Under the pieces are notes generated by a model. The model saw nothing but the letters and a program-made list of their open reading frames with translations. It was not told the DNA's origin and searched no databases. A stretch of DNA of 64,000 nt from Desulfobacter hydrogenophilus (GTDB lineage Bacteria; Desulfobacterota; Desulfobacteria; Desulfobacterales; Desulfobacteraceae), in assembly GCF_004319545.1 (NCBI RefSeq), contig NZ_CP036313.1, forward strand, positions 1,924,501 through 1,988,500, given 5' to 3'. Each line of letters begins with the position of its first letter. The stretch's first letter is position 1. The translations under genes and the position numbers were made by a program. Shown here one piece after another: positions 52,113 to 60,614 of this stretch.

Positions 52113-52250
52113 ACTTTAGGAAACACTCCTTGCAATCCAAATTAATCTTATGTATAGCTAATCAAAAAATATTGACTCTATAATGGATCGTCCTCGGGTT
52201 TGTCAAAATATTTTATTGATCAATGCCTGACAATTAAGGAAAACACCCCT

Positions 52251-53240
52251 ATGGCAGATAATCGTCCCTTTTTGATACTTGCCCCTTTGCAGGGGGTCAC
52301 AGATGTGGTGTTTAGACAGGCCTATGTCAGGCATTTCAACGGCATTGACCAGGCCATGGCCCCGTTTATATCTACCATGAGCAGCAGGCGCTTGAAACCG
52401 TCCAGACTTAAAGACGTGGATCCGGCGTTGAACACAGCCCTTCCTGTCATCCCCCAGATTCTGGGTAATGATCCGGATGATTTTATCTATCTTGGGGATT
52501 CTCTTTTTGACATGGGCTATGCCCAGGTGAACTGGAACCTTGGGTGCCCTCATTCAAAGATTGCAAAGAAACTGAGGGGGTCGGGCCTTTTATCCCACCC
52601 GGATAAAATAGACGCTTTCCTTTCCCGGGTAATCCCGGTCATGAAACCCGCGTTAAGTGTTAAAATCCGCCTGGGGCGTAAAAGTAAGGAAGAGATCCGG
52701 GACCTGATTGCAATGTTTAATGCCCACAAACTTGACGAAATTATCCTGCATCCCAGAACCGGGGAGCAAATGTATACAGGCGCCGTTGATGTTGACGCGT
52801 TTGAAGCGGCCATGAACGCCTGTGACCATCCCATGGTCTATAACGGAGATATTGTGGACTCGGCATCATGGGAAATAATCCGGCAGCGTTTTCCGGACAT
52901 CAGTCGCTTCATGATCGGCAGAGGTGTTCTTTCCAACCCCTTTTTGCCTGAGCAGATCAAGGGGATGAACATCGATTCCCAAAACACCGACTTCCAAAGG
53001 CGTGAACGATTGAAAAAATTTTATGCGGATCTTTTTAATAGTTACAAACAGGTCTTTTCAGGCCCGGGGCACCTTATCGGGCGCATGAAGGGATTCTGGA
53101 ACTATCTGGGGCCTTCTTTTGAGAACAGCAAGAAACCGTTGAAAAAACTGCTTAAGTCAAATTCGGAACAGGACTATTTAGACCGGGTCAATGAATTCTG
53201 GGGCATGAACTTAAAATTTTGTCCGGGCAGGATAGAATGA
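52251..53240 (+). CDS. tRNA-dihydrouridine synthase family protein
   Basis: 329 residues from the ATG at 52251, with AAGGA 13 bases upstream; an earlier in-frame start 17 codons back lacks one. An FMN enzyme that reduces uridine in tRNA D-loops. LAPLQGVTDVVFR is the FMN-binding start, NWNLGCPHSKIAKKLRGSG contains the catalytic Cys, and SVKIRLG, LHPRTGEQ and VYNGDIVD follow. It is nearer DusA/DusC than DusB, and a separate DusB is at 59604. It is 88 bases beyond the divergent acyl-CoA synthetase start. Confidence 0.88.
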   Translation: MADNRPFLILAPLQGVTDVVFRQAYVRHFNGIDQAMAPFISTMSSRRLKPSRLKDVDPALNTALPVIPQILGNDPDDFIYLGDSLFDMGYAQVNWNLGCPHSKIAKKLRGSGLLSHPDKIDAFLSRVIPVMKPALSVKIRLGRKSKEEIRDLIAMFNAHKLDEIILHPRTGEQMYTGAVDVDAFEAAMNACDHPMVYNGDIVDSASWEIIRQRFPDISRFMIGRGVLSNPFLPEQIKGMNIDSQNTDFQRRERLKKFYADLFNSYKQVFSGPGHLIGRMKGFWNYLGPSFENSKKPLKKLLKSNSEQDYLDRVNEFWGMNLKFCPGRIE

Positions 53241-53340: not shown

Positions 53341-53447
53341 CCGTTGGCATATAAAATATTGTACCATGGATAATAGCCCTTGATTTATTAAAGAGAGAGG
53401 TTGATCATAACTTTGTGTTAATTTTTTTATTTTATAAGGAGGGATTA

Positions 53448-54593
53448 ATGGGTTTAAATTTAAAATCAGTTTTTATGGTATTTATTGCTGTGCTTTTTAT
53501 TGGATGCTTTTATTCTGCAAATGCGGATGAAAGCAACGATCCGTCGTGCTTTTCCAAAAGCCTCCATGCCAGTGGAGAAGGAATGCGTTACTGGTATGAG
53601 GAAGAGGGGGGATTCAAAAATCTCACAGGAATTCCCTACGATGAGCTTGACTGCAAAAATTGCCACGTTAAAAGCTGCGACCAATGCCACATTGGTGGAA
53701 AAGAGGGAAAATGCACTTATTCCACAGAAGTCGCCCAAAAAAACGAGACTTGCCTCAAATGTCATACACGGGCAAAAGCTACCATTAAAATCAATACAGC
53801 ACAGGACGCGCTGGACGTGCATTTTAAAAATGGAATGACCTGCGTGGAATGCCACGAATCTCATGATGTGCACGGAGACGGCACGCAATATCACACCATG
53901 CGCGAAAAGGGAGCTGTTACTGCGACCTGTGAAAATTGCCACGAAGAAGATCCGGAAGATACCAACGAAGCGCACAAGCAGCATAAAAAAGATATTCACT
54001 GTTCGGCATGTCATGTGAAAGCTAGCACAACCTGCATGAATTGCCATTTTGGAAAATTTTTGGAAACCAAGCAAAGAAAAGGAAATTTTATTCCGCCTTC
54101 GCAAACATGGACCCTGCTTATGAATTATGATGGCAAGGTTGCTTCTGCGAACGTTCAATCGCTTGTTTACAAAGGCAAAAAATTTATTGCATATGCCCCA
54201 TATTTTACCCACGCAATCCAGGAAAAAGGCAAGGATTGTTCGGATTGCCACGCAAACAAAGCAACGCAGCTTATTCAAAAAGGGGAATCCGTTCCAATGC
54301 TTTCTTTTAAAGACGGCAAGGTCGTTCATTGGGAGGGAATCGTTCCGGTGGCGCCTGATAATTTGGAATGGACATTTTTTGACAAAAAAGACGAGGATTG
54401 GGTTCCAATTGAAAGCGCTGAAAAGCCTGTTGTGCAGTTTGCAGGCTACGGCACGCCATTCAGTAAAGAACAGATAGACTTAATGTCTCTGAGTCCGGAA
54501 GACGCCAAAAAAGCAAAAGAGAAGACTGGCAAAAAGGGCAAGAAGGACAAGAAGGGCAATTCGTTCTTGAATTTTTTTAACCCCTCTTTTTAA
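53448..54593 (+). CDS. Secreted octahaem c-type cytochrome
   Basis: 381 residues from the ATG at 53448 (AAGGAGGG eight bases upstream). A signal peptide covers about residues 1-25 (VFMVFIAVLFIGCFYSANA). Eight CXXCH sites are seen: CKNCH, CDQCH, CLKCH, CVECH, CENCH, CSACH, CMNCH and CSDCH. An extra Lys-rich tail follows (KKAKEKTGKKGKKDKKG), ending in a hydrophobic FLNFF patch. It is less GC-rich than its neighbours. A periplasmic or extracellular electron carrier is the likely role; the partner is unknown. Confidence 0.88.
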   Translation: MGLNLKSVFMVFIAVLFIGCFYSANADESNDPSCFSKSLHASGEGMRYWYEEEGGFKNLTGIPYDELDCKNCHVKSCDQCHIGGKEGKCTYSTEVAQKNETCLKCHTRAKATIKINTAQDALDVHFKNGMTCVECHESHDVHGDGTQYHTMREKGAVTATCENCHEEDPEDTNEAHKQHKKDIHCSACHVKASTTCMNCHFGKFLETKQRKGNFIPPSQTWTLLMNYDGKVASANVQSLVYKGKKFIAYAPYFTHAIQEKGKDCSDCHANKATQLIQKGESVPMLSFKDGKVVHWEGIVPVAPDNLEWTFFDKKDEDWVPIESAEKPVVQFAGYGTPFSKEQIDLMSLSPEDAKKAKEKTGKKGKKDKKGNSFLNFFNPSF

Positions 54594-54771: not shown

Positions 54772-56772
54772 CTAAATAGAGACAGCAGCCTCATAACCCC
54801 CATGCACGGCATCAAAAGCCGTTCCCACCTTTAAGGCATCACCGACCACACGGTAGTCAATGCCAAGTTTTTTGGCAACCTGCTCCAATGGATTGTAAGA
54901 TACAGCACCTACAGCCACAACAACAGTGTCAAAGTCCAGGGTATTGATTTTGCCATCCTTTTCAATTTCCAGTCCTGTTTCTGTAATCCGCAACACTTTT
55001 GCGGCGGTCACAGTTTCCACATTAAAACGCCTAAGATCCTGCATCATCCCCCACCTGGTTGATTTACCGATATCCCTTCCAATGCTATTGGTCATCTCAA
55101 TGAGACATACTTTTTTGCTGCCCCGTGTGGCCATGTCAAAAAGTGCTTCCGGAGTTTCCGCCTTGTTCACCAGCAGAAATTTGATGGTTTCTGCCGAAAC
55201 TGTACCTTTTTCCGAAAGGACCAATGCCGTTTCAACCCCCACAGCCCCACCACCGATGATGGCCACATTTTTGCCGGTCCCCACCTTGTTTTCAAGAACA
55301 TCCCAGGCCCCTGCCACATGGGGAAGGTCCATGCCGGGGATGGCCGGTTTAAGGGGAATCGCGCCTGTGGCGAGGATTAGAGTATCGGGTTTTTCCTTTG
55401 AAATAAAGGCTTCGTCCACCTTGCAATTTAACACCACGGGGATTTTTTCCACAGAGAGCTGAGTTTCAAGGTCATCTGAAAATCGGGAAAATGTTTTCCG
55501 GCCCGGAGGTGCCGCAGCCAGGTGGAGTTGTCCGCCTAAACGCCTGGCACTCTCATACAGGGTCACATCATGCCCACGCCGGGCACAGGCCAGCGCGGCC
55601 GTCATACCGGCAGGCCCGCCGCCAATCACCATCACTTTTTTGGCCGCCTTAACTTTGCCTGTTTTTTTGCAGTACTCATGGCCGGCCAAAGGATTGCAAA
55701 GGCACTCCACATGCTTGAGTTTGAACAGGTTGTCAAAACAGCCCTGGGCACAGGCAATACAATGGACAATCTCCTTTTCTCTGCCTTCACGGGCTTTTTT
55801 GGGCAGATCCGGGTCTGCGATCAGACTGCGGCCCATGGCTACCATGTCGCAAAATTCCTGATTAATCATCTCCCTGGCGGTTTCAGGGTCATCTATCCTG
55901 TGGCTTGCGATCACAGGGACATGCACAGCAGCGCGGATATCCCGGGCAAGATAGCCGAATGCCCCCTTGGGTACCTGGGCCACAATCTGGGGCACCCGGG
56001 CCTCATGCCAGCCCACATTGATACACAAGGCATCCACAGGCCCGTTGGATAGTTGTTTTGCATATTCGATGAGATCGGATCGTTTATTGCCCCCCGGCAT
56101 AAAATCATTACCGTTCATTCTTACAATCAAGGGGTAGTCAGGCCCCACGGCATCCCGAACCGCCTGGGCCACTTCCAGGCCAAACCGCATGCGCTTTTCA
56201 AGGTATCCTCCGTATTCATCGGTACGCTGATTGGTCAGCGGCGACAAAAATTCGGAGATAAGATACCCCGTGCCCGACAGAATCTCCACAGCATCAAACC
56301 CTGCCTTTTTTACCCGGGCTGCGGCATTTGCAAAGGATTCAATGGCCTGCTGTATCTCCTTTATTTCAAGGGCTTTTGGCGTCTCCTTTGTCATTCTGGA
56401 GGCAATGGCAGACGGGGCCACGGGCTGTTTGCCATTGAGCAGGAATGAAAAATTATACCGGCCGGCATGGTTAATCTGCACGGCACAAAGACTTCCATTT
56501 TTCCGGATGGTCTCTGCCAGCCGGGTCAATCCAGGGATAAATTTATCATCATGGGCACCAATGTTTCGGGTGTTGCCGGATAGTTCGTCCACCGTGGCAT
56601 ACCCTACGCAGATCATACCCGGCCCGCCTTTGGCCCGTCTCGCGTAAAATTCAACGATTTGATCCGTCACTTCAAATGCCTGTGCCATGCCCAGGTGCAT
56701 GGCCGGCATATAAATTCTGTTGGGAATGTTCAATTGATTGATTCGGATGGGAGCAAACAGAGGATCTGTCAT
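54772..56772 (-). CDS. NADH:flavin oxidoreductase (2,4-dienoyl-CoA reductase/OYE family)
   Basis: 666 residues in the FadH arrangement. Residues 1-350 are an FMN TIM barrel (ICVGYATVDE, VQINHAGRY, IVRMNGNDFMPGG, VAMGRSLIADPDLPKKA). The [4Fe-4S] ligands are in CIACAQGCFDNLFKLKHVECLCNP. The C-terminal half has FAD (VIGGGPAGMTAALACARRGHD) and NAD(P) (AIIGGGAVGVETALVL) folds. It would reduce an activated C=C bond with NAD(P)H via FAD, Fe-S and FMN; related enzymes act on 2-enoate, dienoyl-CoA or steroid substrates. The true substrate is open. GGAAGCAC before the ATG is weak. The sigma-54 activator remnant starts 22 bases upstream. Confidence 0.9.
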   Translation of the reverse strand: MTDPLFAPIRINQLNIPNRIYMPAMHLGMAQAFEVTDQIVEFYARRAKGGPGMICVGYATVDELSGNTRNIGAHDDKFIPGLTRLAETIRKNGSLCAVQINHAGRYNFSFLLNGKQPVAPSAIASRMTKETPKALEIKEIQQAIESFANAAARVKKAGFDAVEILSGTGYLISEFLSPLTNQRTDEYGGYLEKRMRFGLEVAQAVRDAVGPDYPLIVRMNGNDFMPGGNKRSDLIEYAKQLSNGPVDALCINVGWHEARVPQIVAQVPKGAFGYLARDIRAAVHVPVIASHRIDDPETAREMINQEFCDMVAMGRSLIADPDLPKKAREGREKEIVHCIACAQGCFDNLFKLKHVECLCNPLAGHEYCKKTGKVKAAKKVMVIGGGPAGMTAALACARRGHDVTLYESARRLGGQLHLAAAPPGRKTFSRFSDDLETQLSVEKIPVVLNCKVDEAFISKEKPDTLILATGAIPLKPAIPGMDLPHVAGAWDVLENKVGTGKNVAIIGGGAVGVETALVLSEKGTVSAETIKFLLVNKAETPEALFDMATRGSKKVCLIEMTNSIGRDIGKSTRWGMMQDLRRFNVETVTAAKVLRITETGLEIEKDGKINTLDFDTVVVAVGAVSYNPLEQVAKKLGIDYRVVGDALKVGTAFDAVHGGYEAAVSI

Positions 56773-56794: not shown

Positions 56795-57222
56795 TTAACC
56801 TTGTTTAAGTGGAATATCCCATTTTTTCATGTACTTCCAGACAAGGGTACGGCTTTTCCCAAGTTGTCTTGCCACCTCAGCCTTATTCCAGTTGCAGGTA
56901 TCCAAAAGCGACACCAGATGCTCCCGGGTCAAGGGTGTCGGGGAAAAGGAAGGCGGATTTGAGAATGAAGCGTTCTCTGGGGATGCCGCATCGGATTGAT
57001 TCTGACCGCAAACCTCGTCAGGCAAATCGGCACGGCTTATTTCCCGGGTGCGGCATAGCACAAATCCATGGGCAATGGCATTTTCCAGTTCCCGAACATT
57101 CCCGGGCCAAGGGTAGGCCATCAGCGCTTTCATGGTATCAGGGGGGCACATTGTGGATGTTCATGCCCTCGTGTTTATTCCCCTTTTCGATGAAGTTTCG
57201 GACCAGCATGGCATTTTTAATC
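56795..57222 (-). pseudogene. Sigma-54 activator, C-terminal remnant with frameshift
   Basis: The readable part (DTMKALMAYPWPGNVRELENAI, a linker, then CNWNKAEVARQLGKSRTLVWKYMKKW) is the end of an NtrC-type AAA+ domain and its Fis HTH. Continuing upstream, codons for MLVRNFIEKGNKHEGMNIHNV fit the family but lie in another frame: a run of six C at about 57140-57145 joins them with a one-base shift. Further upstream the gene stops at a copy of the MITE-like end near 57215, so Walker A and GAFTGA are lost. It cannot activate sigma-54, although the HTH could still bind DNA if expressed. Confidence 0.8.
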
Positions 57223-57232
57223 TGCGGTCCTT
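57213..57232 (+). repeat. Solitary end of the MITE-like repeat at pseudogene breakpoint
   Basis: TTTTTAATCTGCGGTCCTTA matches the right end of the 44534-44695 element. It marks where coding homology of the sigma-54 activator ceases, so insertion, recombination or deletion at such an element probably removed the 5' part of the gene. Confidence 0.55.
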
Positions 57233-57365
57233 ATTCACACTTCACCCGTTATAGTTACTGTTTGACAACGGATAATGATACGGTAACGTTACTTAACAAT
57301 CAATTTTTATCCTCAAACGGATTCTTTTTTTTCTTTTTGCCTGTCTCCTGACAGGCATCACGCAT

Positions 57366-57452
57366 TCATGTGGATACACCCATTTTAGGAAGAATATAAA
57401 TTTGGAGCAGCAGATAAACTGCAACAAAGCCGATCATAATTAAAAATTCCAT
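57366..57452 (-). CDS. 28-residue membrane peptide
   Basis: The frame MEFLIMIGF-VAVYLLLQIYI-LPKMGVST has one hydrophobic segment of about 20 residues with a short polar tail. AAAGGAG ends 7-8 bases ahead of the ATG at 57452, an excellent ribosome site. A sigma-54 promoter (57528-57543, minus) is placed to give a leader of about 65 bases. A peptide this small is easily missed by gene callers. It lies upstream of the broken sigma-54 activator and the OYE-like gene on the same strand. Function unknown; a small regulatory or accessory membrane subunit is possible. Confidence 0.65.
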   Translation of the reverse strand: MEFLIMIGFVAVYLLLQIYILPKMGVST

Positions 57453-57527
57453 TCATTATCTCCTTTAAGATTTAGAATTATGCAGGCCCATTGTGCTTAT
57501 TTAAAATAAGTTACAATCACAGTGTTT

Positions 57528-57543
57528 GGCAAGCAATATGCCA
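57528..57543 (-). promoter_or_regulatory. Sigma-54 promoter upstream of the 28-aa peptide
   Basis: The minus strand reads TGGCATATTGCTTGCC: TGGCA and TTGC match the consensus and GG/GC are ten bases apart. It is nearly the same as 41967-41982. The surrounding TTGGCA...TGCCAA (57526-57544) is also a palindrome, and the plus-strand reading (GGCAAGCAATATGC) is a weaker promoter match facing the universal stress gene. Confidence 0.7.
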
Positions 57544-57676: not shown

Positions 57677-58204
57677 ATGATCCAGAAACCAAAACGTATA
57701 TTATTCGCCTCGGACCTGTCCACCAACATGAAAGAGGTATTTAAACATGCCGTATCCCTTTCCACTCTGAGCGATGCGAGCATCGTTGTGCTTCACGTCA
57801 TGGAAGAGTCCGGCAAAAATGCGCAACGGCGCGTACAGCGTGCATTCGGTGAGACACTTTACAACACCATAAGATCCGAACAAAAAGCTGGCGCTCGGAA
57901 CCTGCTTACGGGAAAAAATGTGGATGCCCTGGGTATTAAACAGGCCATTGCCGGTTTCCTGGAAGACAGGGAAAACAGTCCGTCAGATATTGAGATGAGT
58001 TCTCCCATTGAAAAAATCCTTGTTACGGAAAGTAAGTCCATTGCCGATGAAATTACAAGGACAGCAGTTGAAGAAGGATGCGATATTATTGTTATTGGGT
58101 GTGGGCACCGCAGTTTTATAGAAACTGCCATTGGGGATGACATTGCCCGCAAGGTCCTTAAACGAACTTCTGTTCCCGTGTTGGTGGTACCTTTGCTGCA
58201 CTGA
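57677..58204 (+). CDS. Universal stress protein (UspA family)
   Basis: 175 residues. The N-terminal strand RILFASDLSTNMKEVFKHAVSL, the strand 2 VVLHVMEES and the C-terminal CDIIVIGCGHRSFIETAIGDDIARKVLKRTSVPVLVVPL are of the Usp fold. The ATP-binding motif, usually G-2x-G-9x-G(S/T), reads GCGHRSFIETAIGDD here, so the last residue is Asp rather than Ser and nucleotide binding is doubtful. TGGAGTTAG precedes the ATG. It is followed by the hairpin at 58231. Confidence 0.88.
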   Translation: MIQKPKRILFASDLSTNMKEVFKHAVSLSTLSDASIVVLHVMEESGKNAQRRVQRAFGETLYNTIRSEQKAGARNLLTGKNVDALGIKQAIAGFLEDRENSPSDIEMSSPIEKILVTESKSIADEITRTAVEEGCDIIVIGCGHRSFIETAIGDDIARKVLKRTSVPVLVVPLLH

Positions 58205-58701: not shown

Positions 58702-59607
58702 TTGCCCGGCCCTACCGGCATTTTGTCCGCCTCCAGGCGTACCGATATACCAGGGTGGTACATGCCCTGGTTTCTGGATAGAATTGAAAAAGGGTATTTT
58801 ATTGTAACCAATCCATTTAACAGACAGTCCCGCAGGGTTGATGCAACCCCCAAAGACATTCACACCATTGTTTTCTGGTCAAAAAACTATGGCCCATTCC
58901 TGGATTTAAGAGCTCACAAAATTTTAGTCCAAAAAGGATTTCACCTGTTTTTCAATTTTACCATCAATACCCCCCTAAAAGAGCTTGAGCCCGGTTTGCC
59001 TGATCTCTCAGAGCGTTTGGCCCAGGTCCGGCGTATTGTCTGGGACTTAAGTCCAGGACAGGCTGCCTGGCGTTTTGACCCCATCTGTTTTTATGAGAAG
59101 GGTGGCCGAGTGTTTAACAATCTTGACACCTTTGAATATATTGCAGGGCAATTGTCACAGATGGGTATCAAACAATGTATTACCAGTTTTTATGATCCGT
59201 ATAAAAAGGTGGCCGCAAGAATAAAACGCATGACTGGGCTCGGCAGCCCCATGCTCAAATTCATTGATCCGGGCATGGAGCGCAAAACAAACATTATCCG
59301 CAGTATGGCTCAATTTCTCAACCCCCTTGGCATGGACCTTTTTTTATGCTGTGAAAAAGAATTGATGGATGCAGCCGGATTACAGACATATGCATCCCCT
59401 AACGCCTGCATCAACGGACGCCTTTATAAAACTTTATTTGGGGGGAATCCGGAAACCCGCGGCGATTATGGGCAACGGCGTAAAAAAGGCTGTCAATGCA
59501 CAAAATCGTTCGATATCGGTTCCTATGAAGACCACCCTTGTTTCCACAATTGCCTTTTCTGCTATGCCAGAACGGGCCTTGATATCAAAAAAACGTCCAT
59601 AGGGTGA
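58702..59607 (+). CDS. DUF1848 family iron-sulfur protein
   Basis: 301 residues from a TTG at 58702, which has CAGGAG seven bases upstream. The frame is open further back into the previous gene, but family homology starts at ILSASRRTDIPGWYMPW. TIVFWSKNYGPFL, FNFTINT, WRFDPI and the closing DHPCFHNCLFCYARTG are visible. The CxxxCxxC there suggests an Fe-S cluster resembling radical-SAM proteins, though the order is unusual, at the C-terminus. Reaction unknown. Its stop overlaps a possible GTG start of dusB. Confidence 0.82.
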   Translation: MPGPTGILSASRRTDIPGWYMPWFLDRIEKGYFIVTNPFNRQSRRVDATPKDIHTIVFWSKNYGPFLDLRAHKILVQKGFHLFFNFTINTPLKELEPGLPDLSERLAQVRRIVWDLSPGQAAWRFDPICFYEKGGRVFNNLDTFEYIAGQLSQMGIKQCITSFYDPYKKVAARIKRMTGLGSPMLKFIDPGMERKTNIIRSMAQFLNPLGMDLFLCCEKELMDAAGLQTYASPNACINGRLYKTLFGGNPETRGDYGQRRKKGCQCTKSFDIGSYEDHPCFHNCLFCYARTGLDIKKTSIG

Positions 59608-60614
59608 CCCGGCTTGTTATTTCTCCAATTAGCCTACGATATAATATGAAAATAAAAGACCTAGAAATTAACGGCATTACTTTTTTGGCTCCCCTGGCAG
59701 GAATTACCAATCTGCCCTTCAGACAATTGATAAAGGATTGTGGGTGTGCTGTGGTATGCTCGGAAATGATCAGTGCCAAAGGCATATTCTATAACTCAGA
59801 AAAGACAATAACTCTGCTTAAGTCACAGAAAACCGAGCGACCCTTGTCTGTACAGATCTTTGGGTCGGATCCGGTATCCATGGGGCAGGCTGCCGCATTT
59901 ATCGATGATCTTGGGACAGCAGATATCATTGACATTAATTTTGGGTGCAGTGTCAGAAAAGTGATCAAACAAGGGGCCGGTGTCGCACTAATGAAGGATC
60001 CCGCCCTTGCCCGAAAAATATTAAAGGCTGTCAGAAATGCCACATCTCTGCCTTTTACCATAAAAATACGCAGCGGTTGGGATACGTTTGGGGATCAGGC
60101 CGTGAATTTGGCGAAAATCGCCGAAGACCAGGGGGTCGACGCCATCGCCTTTCACCCGAGGAGTGCTGCTCAGGGGTTCAGGGGGAAGGCGGACTGGAAA
60201 CTGATTGCACGACTTAAACAGGCCATCCGCATTCCCGTCATAGGAAACGGCGATATCATTACGCCCCAGGACGCAGGAGAAATGTTTTCCCAGACCGGCT
60301 GTGACGCCGTCATGGTGGGAAGGGCGGCCATGGCCAATCCGTTTATTCTTTCACAAATCGAACAGTATGTGGCCCACGGCACATTCACCCGTCCTGAGCC
60401 TTGGGCCATCTTTAGAAAAATGGAAGCATTAATCCAGGGGTATGTCACCTATTTTGGGGAAACCACGGCATGCAGGATGCTCAGGGGCAGGCTTGCATGG
60501 TTTATTCGGGGATTGCCCGGGGCCGCTGGGTTCCGCAAACAATTATCCACCCTTGTAAGCAGTGCCCAGGCCCGTGATATGATCCGGGATTTCGAGGCAG
60601 GCATCAAGGATTGA
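59604..60614 (+). CDS. dusB: tRNA-dihydrouridine synthase DusB
   Basis: 336 residues if the GTG at 59604 (GTGA overlap with the previous stop) is used, or 322 from ATG 59646, where family homology begins (KIKDLEINGITFLAPLAGITNLPFR). Neither has a good ribosome site, so coupling favours the GTG. FMN enzyme: SVQIFGSDP, DINFGCSVRKVIKQGAGVALM with the catalytic Cys (usual P after it is S), FTIKIRSGWD, AFHPRSAAQGFRGKADW and VIGNGDI. It reduces uridine at D-loop positions of tRNA. Confidence 0.9.
   Translation: MTRLVISPISLRYNMKIKDLEINGITFLAPLAGITNLPFRQLIKDCGCAVVCSEMISAKGIFYNSEKTITLLKSQKTERPLSVQIFGSDPVSMGQAAAFIDDLGTADIIDINFGCSVRKVIKQGAGVALMKDPALARKILKAVRNATSLPFTIKIRSGWDTFGDQAVNLAKIAEDQGVDAIAFHPRSAAQGFRGKADWKLIARLKQAIRIPVIGNGDIITPQDAGEMFSQTGCDAVMVGRAAMANPFILSQIEQYVAHGTFTRPEPWAIFRKMEALIQGYVTYFGETTACRMLRGRLAWFIRGLPGAAGFRKQLSTLVSSAQARDMIRDFEAGIKD

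What the first reader, a model, noticed from the sequence alone, without database searches (positions are those of the whole stretch)
56795..57543. 28-aa membrane peptide with its own sigma-54 promoter beside a dead sigma-54 activator
The peptide has a strong ribosome site, a single transmembrane segment and a near-consensus sigma-54 promoter (TGGCATATTGCTTGCC). The activator that should control it lies directly downstream but has lost its 5' part at a MITE-like end and carries a frameshift in a C6 run. The unit may once have been a regulator-peptide-reductase module including the OYE-like enzyme; the promoter may now respond to another activator.
Basis: partly seen in the sequence, partly recalled or inferred. 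Interest (0 to 1): 0.7.

Follow-up and report, generated by a model that had tools for sequence, protein, structure and literature searches.

The report
Tiny membrane selenoprotein mistaken for peptide
What looks like a 28-residue membrane peptide is the front half of a roughly 50-residue membrane protein whose 'stop' codon very probably encodes selenocysteine, a selenium-bearing residue; relatives occur in hundreds of bacterial genomes and are usually cut short there in databases.

Summary
The peptide, ribosome site, sigma-54 promoter and broken activator are all there. But the peptide does not end at its TGA. A conserved tail follows in frame: MEFLIMIGFVAVYLLLQIYILPKMGVST-U-MRDACQETGKKKKKNPFEDKN (57303-57452, minus).

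In the 30 loci fetched with the N-terminal part alone, the next codon is TGA and Cys stands at +5 in 30 of 30. A SECIS-like hairpin follows the TGA, far above controls, and pairs beyond synonymous-codon shuffles. Seven of 47 full-length database relatives have Cys exactly at the TGA. The genome has SelA, SelB and tRNA-Sec. I conclude: a new single-span selenoprotein family, in 301 of 389 class genomes and 100 of 247 phylum genomes.

In Desulfobacter relatives it precedes an intact PAS/sigma-54 activator and often an OYE-like reductase; the sigma-54 promoter goes with that activator. Other lineages have MerR or an ECF sigma factor instead. The window's activator is a remnant. Function, a membrane-anchored selenol/thiol redox relay, is inferred. 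No matching family was found in NCBIfam, Pfam or the papers seen.

The parts
57528..57543 (-). sigma-54 (-24/-12) promoter TGGCATATTGCTTGCC
   Evidence: score 13.5 of 14, 0 of 300 shuffles reach it; same site in activator-next relatives
57459..57466 (-). ribosome binding site AAAGGAGA
   Evidence: sequence
57303..57452 (-). selenoprotein coding sequence, 50 residues with U29 (final stop TGA at 57300-57302)
57366..57368 (-). in-frame TGA, proposed selenocysteine codon
   Evidence: TGA in 30 of 30 loci; Cys at this place in 7 of 47 full-length database relatives
57338..57357 (-). SECIS-like hairpin, 8 pairs, apical loop AGGA, 16 nt after the TGA
56795..57209 (-). remnant of a PAS/sigma-54 activator (lid and HTH; frameshift at C6 run 57141-57146)
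54772..56772 (-). OYE-like FMN/FAD reductase (Oxidored_FMN + Pyr_redox_2), end of the module
57677..58204 (+). divergent universal stress protein gene
   Evidence: also divergent in five of the six activator-bearing genus-mates

Best explanation
The locus encodes a 50-residue single-span membrane selenoprotein. The ribosome reads the TGA as selenocysteine, directed by a hairpin just behind it (strongly supported by comparison; not shown by experiment). The protein lies N-out/C-in, so that the Sec-x4-Cys pair sits at the cytoplasmic membrane face in a basic flexible tail (inferred). There it most likely acts as a selenol/thiol redox relay or reductase made under stress (inferred; alone about 0.4). 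In the Desulfobacter lineage a PAS-type sigma-54 activator encoded next door drives it, often with an OYE-like flavoenzyme behind (supported by co-occurrence of promoter and activator). In this genome the activator has decayed while promoter and selenoprotein are intact, so expression rests on another activator or is low (inferred). The confidence given is for selenoprotein plus module; selenoprotein alone I put at 0.95.
For: TGA and Cys+5 in 30 of 30 loci found with the N-terminal part only. Conserved frame after the TGA in 301 of 389 class genomes and 100 of 247 phylum genomes. Six of 77 distinct members have GTC, GTT or CTC, not a start codon, after the TGA. bSECIS geometry 51 of 57 against 58 of 267 and 136 of 548 controls; 0 of 1000 synonymous shuffles reach the observed pairing. 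Cys at the TGA place in 7 of 47. SelA, SelB, tRNA-SeC present. Module and promoter. Tail net charge +2.8 after the helix against -0.35 in the first five residues, 57 members.
Against: No selenium incorporation shown. SelA presence hardly discriminates (360 of 389 and 224 of 247 genomes). 15 of the 20 listed class genomes without a SelA match carry the gene (all 69-92% complete drafts; 9 more not listed), and 4 of 100 phylum carriers lack it, G459 being 98% complete (one of the four, G601, inferred from its absence in a capped list). Six of 57 members miss the bSECIS geometry and 16 of 57 the energy limit. The count of pair types does not exceed shuffles (146 of 1000). No constant enzyme neighbour, so the relay function is weakly founded; the AF2 model is poor (mean pLDDT 67).
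Confidence: 0.8

Rival explanations
1. Two tiny coupled genes: a 28-aa membrane peptide that really stops at TGA, and a second small protein starting at the ATG right after it.
For: ATG follows the TGA in 68 of 77 distinct members, GTG in 2 and CTG in 1.
Against: GTC (3), CTC (2) and GTT (1) follow in the rest. The stop is TGA in 30 of 30 unconditioned loci, while TGA is 269 of 548 among long open frames of the same loci. Cys forms read straight through as one protein. A hairpin is kept.
Confidence: 0.03
2. The selenoprotein is a small accessory subunit of a membrane enzyme complex, its Sec-Cys pair serving that enzyme, rather than a free redox relay.
For: Single copy and widespread; small single-span subunits of this size are known in other complexes (recalled, e.g. 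CydX).
Against: No enzyme neighbour is constant over 136 distinct loci; the OYE-like gene is downstream in 20, not beyond the family's lineages as far as seen.
Confidence: 0.25
3. The TGA is read as another residue (for example Trp) or by leaky read-through rather than as selenocysteine.
For: 38 of 47 full-length database relatives carry Trp there.
Against: Those Trp letters are most easily explained by gene callers using TGA=Trp (inference; their DNA was not seen). Cys, not Trp, fits a conserved Sec-x4-Cys pair; Sec machinery and a SECIS-like hairpin are present. TGA serves as an ordinary stop for other genes here.
Confidence: 0.03

Closest known systems
Bacterial selenoproteins with bSECIS elements (Table 1 of PMC13188914, 119 families/subfamilies)
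   Same: In-frame TGA, hairpin directly downstream, Cys forms, Sec machinery
   Different: No listed family has this Sec-x4-Cys, single-span, about 50-residue form; Cys forms appear rare here, the reverse of the usual picture
Eukaryotic SELENOS (and SELENOK, recalled): single-pass membrane selenoproteins
   Same: Membrane anchor with Sec near the C-terminal end; for SelS a Sec188-Cys174 selenosulfide is described (start of abstract of PMC3628699)
   Different: Much smaller here, Cys lies after Sec, bacterial SECIS; homology was not tested, likeness is of architecture only
PAS-domain sigma-54 activators (NtrC-type AAA+ proteins)
   Same: Intact neighbours in relatives have PAS, Sigma54_activat and AAA_lid_14
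   Different: The window's copy keeps only lid and HTH, in two frames

Membership tests
Bacterial selenoprotein | Conserved in-frame TGA with a conserved frame behind it | tested here: met
   30 of 30 loci; 301 of 389 class genomes
Bacterial selenoprotein | bSECIS hairpin 16-37 nt after the TGA with G in the first two loop places | tested here: met
   51 of 57 members geometry, 41 of 57 with energy limit; controls 58/267 and 136/548; model as in PMC13188914 section 5
Bacterial selenoprotein | Homologs with Cys at the Sec place | tested here: met
   7 of 47 full-length hits; none in one pattern scan of 84,980 species
Bacterial selenoprotein | Host has SelA, SelB and tRNA-Sec | tested here: met
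Bacterial selenoprotein | Selenium in the protein | not testable with these tools
   needs labelling or mass spectrometry
Any curated NCBIfam or Pfam family | Match over the curated cut-off | tested here: not met
   NCBIfam 11 proteins and Pfam 8 proteins: only chance-level hits under cut-off (best E 0.049)
sigma-54 dependent promoter | -24/-12 elements with correct spacing, conserved in relatives with an activator | tested here: met
   8 of 9 activator-next loci; 0 of 7 MerR-next; transcription not tested
MITE insertion | Element repeated in the genome | tested here: not met
   57212-57302 found once; ends outside that stretch not searched
SELENOS/SELENOK | Homology to the eukaryotic families | not tested
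   only architecture compared, from recall and one abstract

The most novel reading that the evidence does not exclude
The selenoprotein is a selenium-gated regulatory device. In one branch (10 of 136 distinct loci) the ATG of an ECF sigma factor lies inside the selenoprotein's tail, always 40 nt from the T of the TGA and about 10 nt past the SECIS-like hairpin, mostly without a clear ribosome site. Sec insertion at the TGA would then decide whether ribosomes reach and open that start, so that selenium supply controls a transcription programme, with the membrane Sec-Cys pair as its redox arm.
Probability: 0.2. Interest if true: 0.9.

Novelty: new variant of a known kind. Interest (0 to 1): 0.78.

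Why it matters
It is a selenoprotein family carried by most sampled genomes of this class, yet without a curated model in the libraries searched and present in databases mostly as 29-aa fragments (for example DENIS_2149 of Desulfonema ishimotonii). Discovery methods lean on Cys homologs, and the deep-Sep authors say that families lacking them may be filtered out (PMC12013277 section 9), so tiny proteins that are almost always Sec are a blind spot. It gives sulfate reducers a new redox player with a known promoter and regulator, and shows that small 'orphan peptides' ending in TGA deserve a read-through check.

Tried and rejected
Terminator reading of the palindrome after the TGA: it is coding, is followed by A-rich sequence on the gene's strand, and pairs as a SECIS-like hairpin. 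MITE: one copy. Two-ORF reading: see rivals. SelA co-occurrence as a test: SelA is too common. Solved structures: no relative at E<=0.1. AF2 model poor; no fold search made. Plasmid records: no match at E<=1e-3. Another close copy of the activator: none. A constant enzyme partner: none. Genome-contig scan for a Cys form with one pattern: no match, so Cys forms seem rare, but only the best 120 of 1564 profile hits were listed. Papers: Zhang and Gladyshev 2007 is not held; its families were seen only through the table of PMC13188914 and passages of PMC9312934. GOS_A was set aside because it had 2 Sec against 155 Cys forms (PMC2398784 passages). The supplementary list of the 31 selenoproteins of Desulfobacterium autotrophicum (PMC2702500 passages) was not seen.

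Full report
What is there. The window is G000:C1:1924501-1988500 of a 5.16 Mb genome. Its genus appears to be Desulfobacter in the wide sense: the contigs of two genus-mates, G012 (155159 bases) and G015 (26290 bases), have the lengths of contigs titled Desulfobacter latus AcRS2 and Desulfobacter postgatei (a MAG), and the same peptides. The downstream ORF holds only the AAA lid and HTH parts of an activator.

The peptide is widely conserved. With the 28-aa peptide as query, 66 of 86 genomes of the family match at E<=0.1, in 14 of 14 genera, mostly once. Reading on past the match in the 30 loci that call fetched (the best 30 of 70 listed places), the next codon is TGA in 30 of 30 and Cys stands at +5 in 30 of 30. 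Neither was part of the query.

The frame continues. The read-through protein P0001 matches 301 of 389 class genomes at E<=0.01, 128 of 148 genera; every listed row holds a TGA, but the list of rows was cut. With a profile (A2), 100 of 247 phylum genomes match at E<=1e-3; every row but three holds a TGA. Those three (G590, G516, G597) align only the N-terminal part; two codons on they too meet a stop, followed by G-x-P or similar and not the Cys motif. They include Desulfocicer vacuolatum, Desulfacinum hydrothermale, an Olavius algarvensis symbiont, Smithella, and MAGs labelled Melainabacteria, KSB1, Acidobacteria and Myxococcales (labels not checked).

Not a second gene. Among 77 distinct members, found with a pattern that allowed any stop but asked for C or G at +5, the stop is TGA in 77; the next codon is ATG in 68, GTC in 3, GTG in 2, CTC in 2, CTG in 1 and GTT in 1. 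A start codon is thus not required there.

Hairpin. In 57 members less than 85% alike, 51 fit the published bSECIS geometry (as given in PMC13188914 section 5) and 41 also its energy limit. Controls from the same loci: 58 and 40 of 267 stretches after TGA-ended ORFs, 136 and 109 of 548 stretches inside ORFs. The exact form (AG loop at 16 nt, at least 5 pairs) is 40 of 57 against 0 of 267 and 1 of 548. In the 50 members with AG in that register, 293 of 350 pair cells are paired against 276.6 (sd 2.6) when synonymous codons are dealt out anew, and the inner five pairs are complete in 36 against 25.6 (sd 1.8); 0 of 1000 shuffles reach either. The number of pair types is not significant (146 of 1000). 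In L100, L105, L106 and L108 the hairpin lies further on, in different coding sequence, yet the Cys is kept.

Sec/Cys pairs and machinery. Of 47 full-length database hits (P0023-P0069), 7 have Cys at the TGA place, 38 Trp, 1 Arg and 1 Gly; P0002-P0004 also have Trp. Trp probably comes from gene callers that read TGA as Trp (inference). The genome has SelA, SelB over its cut-off and a tRNA-SeC with anticodon tca. SelA hardly discriminates: 360 of 389 and 224 of 247. Against: 15 of the 20 listed class genomes without SelA carry the gene (drafts of 69-92% completeness; 9 further genomes not listed), and in the phylum sample the carriers G396, G459 and G556 lack a SelA match, as does G601 by elimination.

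Module and regulation. In G013, G022, G025, G026, G027 and G028 the selenoprotein is followed by an intact activator of about 466 aa; the OYE-like gene follows in four (in pieces in G013 and G022), and the universal stress protein is divergent in five of the six (in two pieces in G026). Seven other loci of the family have a MerR in the activator's place. A sigma-54 score of 13.5 or more occurs in 8 of 9 activator-next loci (window included; L062 fails) and in G015, which has no activator but keeps the OYE gene; in 0 of 7 MerR-next loci; and in none of 11 other family loci (best 12.0, D. latus) or 27 distant loci (best 12.5). The promoter thus travels with the activator. The window's remnant keeps residues 352-466 and, in another frame, 330-352.

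Other lineages. Over 136 distinct loci, directly downstream there is an activator in 15, a MerR in 10 and an ECF sigma factor in 10; 33 of the 116 loci with at least 1.2 kb of sequence have one of the three. The loci are not evenly drawn. The ECF ATG lies 40 nt from the T of the TGA in all 10, inside the selenoprotein tail in the 9 printed; a zf-HC2 gene follows in 6. Thioredoxin (8) and MobB (8) also recur nearby. In L193 the lowest-energy fold of the stretch is not the SECIS form, and it has GGAGA before the ECF ATG.

Protein. Over 57 members the median length is 53; one strongly hydrophobic helix (mean best-17 hydropathy 2.35, minimum 1.75); mean net charge -0.35 in the first five residues and +2.84 after the helix, at least +1 in 51. 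By the positive-inside rule (recalled) the Sec-Cys end is cytoplasmic. Sec-x4-Cys and the regulators around it suggest a selenol/thiol relay; this is inference.

Known or new. NCBIfam has no match for Sec or Cys members beyond chance, nor has Pfam over its cut-offs; NCBIfam does hold recent selenoprotein models such as NF049942. Table 1 of PMC13188914 (sections 5 and 6 read, section 7 in parts 1 and 2 of 3) lists no such motif. The deep-Sep paper's three new hypothetical families (PMC12013277, passages and section 9) differ: DG has GUxG, DW GxU, and DF had no TGA homologs elsewhere. Literature searches were made; no listed title or abstract start described such a family. Subscription papers and supplements were not seen. 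I rate it a new family of a known kind with unusual features: tiny, membrane-anchored and almost always Sec.

Noticed in passing
L075, L084, L094, L158, L160, L170, L193, L205, L210, L220: An ECF sigma factor starts inside the selenoprotein tail, its ATG always 40 nt from the T of the TGA; six of these have a zf-HC2 (anti-sigma-like) gene next.
   Followed up: partly
L128, L129, L130 (G590, G516, G597): More divergent relatives: LPK/R-x-G-type helix end, then a stop two codons on and G at +1 in place of the Cys motif; perhaps a second related selenoprotein group.
   Followed up: partly
L111 (G012, Desulfobacter latus): Selenoprotein kept, activator, OYE and stress-protein neighbours absent within 6 kb and sigma-54 site weakened (score 12.0).
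   Followed up: no
L064 and L065 (G060): One genome carries two copies of the selenoprotein: one with MerR and OYE, one with the sigma-54 activator and promoter.
   Followed up: partly
L061 and L117 (G013, G022): The OYE-like gene next to the module is in pieces in these two genus-mates.
   Followed up: no
window 52200-53240 and 59604-60614: Two ORFs that look like tRNA-dihydrouridine synthases (by eye; not searched).
   Followed up: no
window 53415-54593: Multiheme cytochrome c-like ORF with a lysine-rich C-terminal end (Pfam cytochrome c7/c3-type matches).
   Followed up: no
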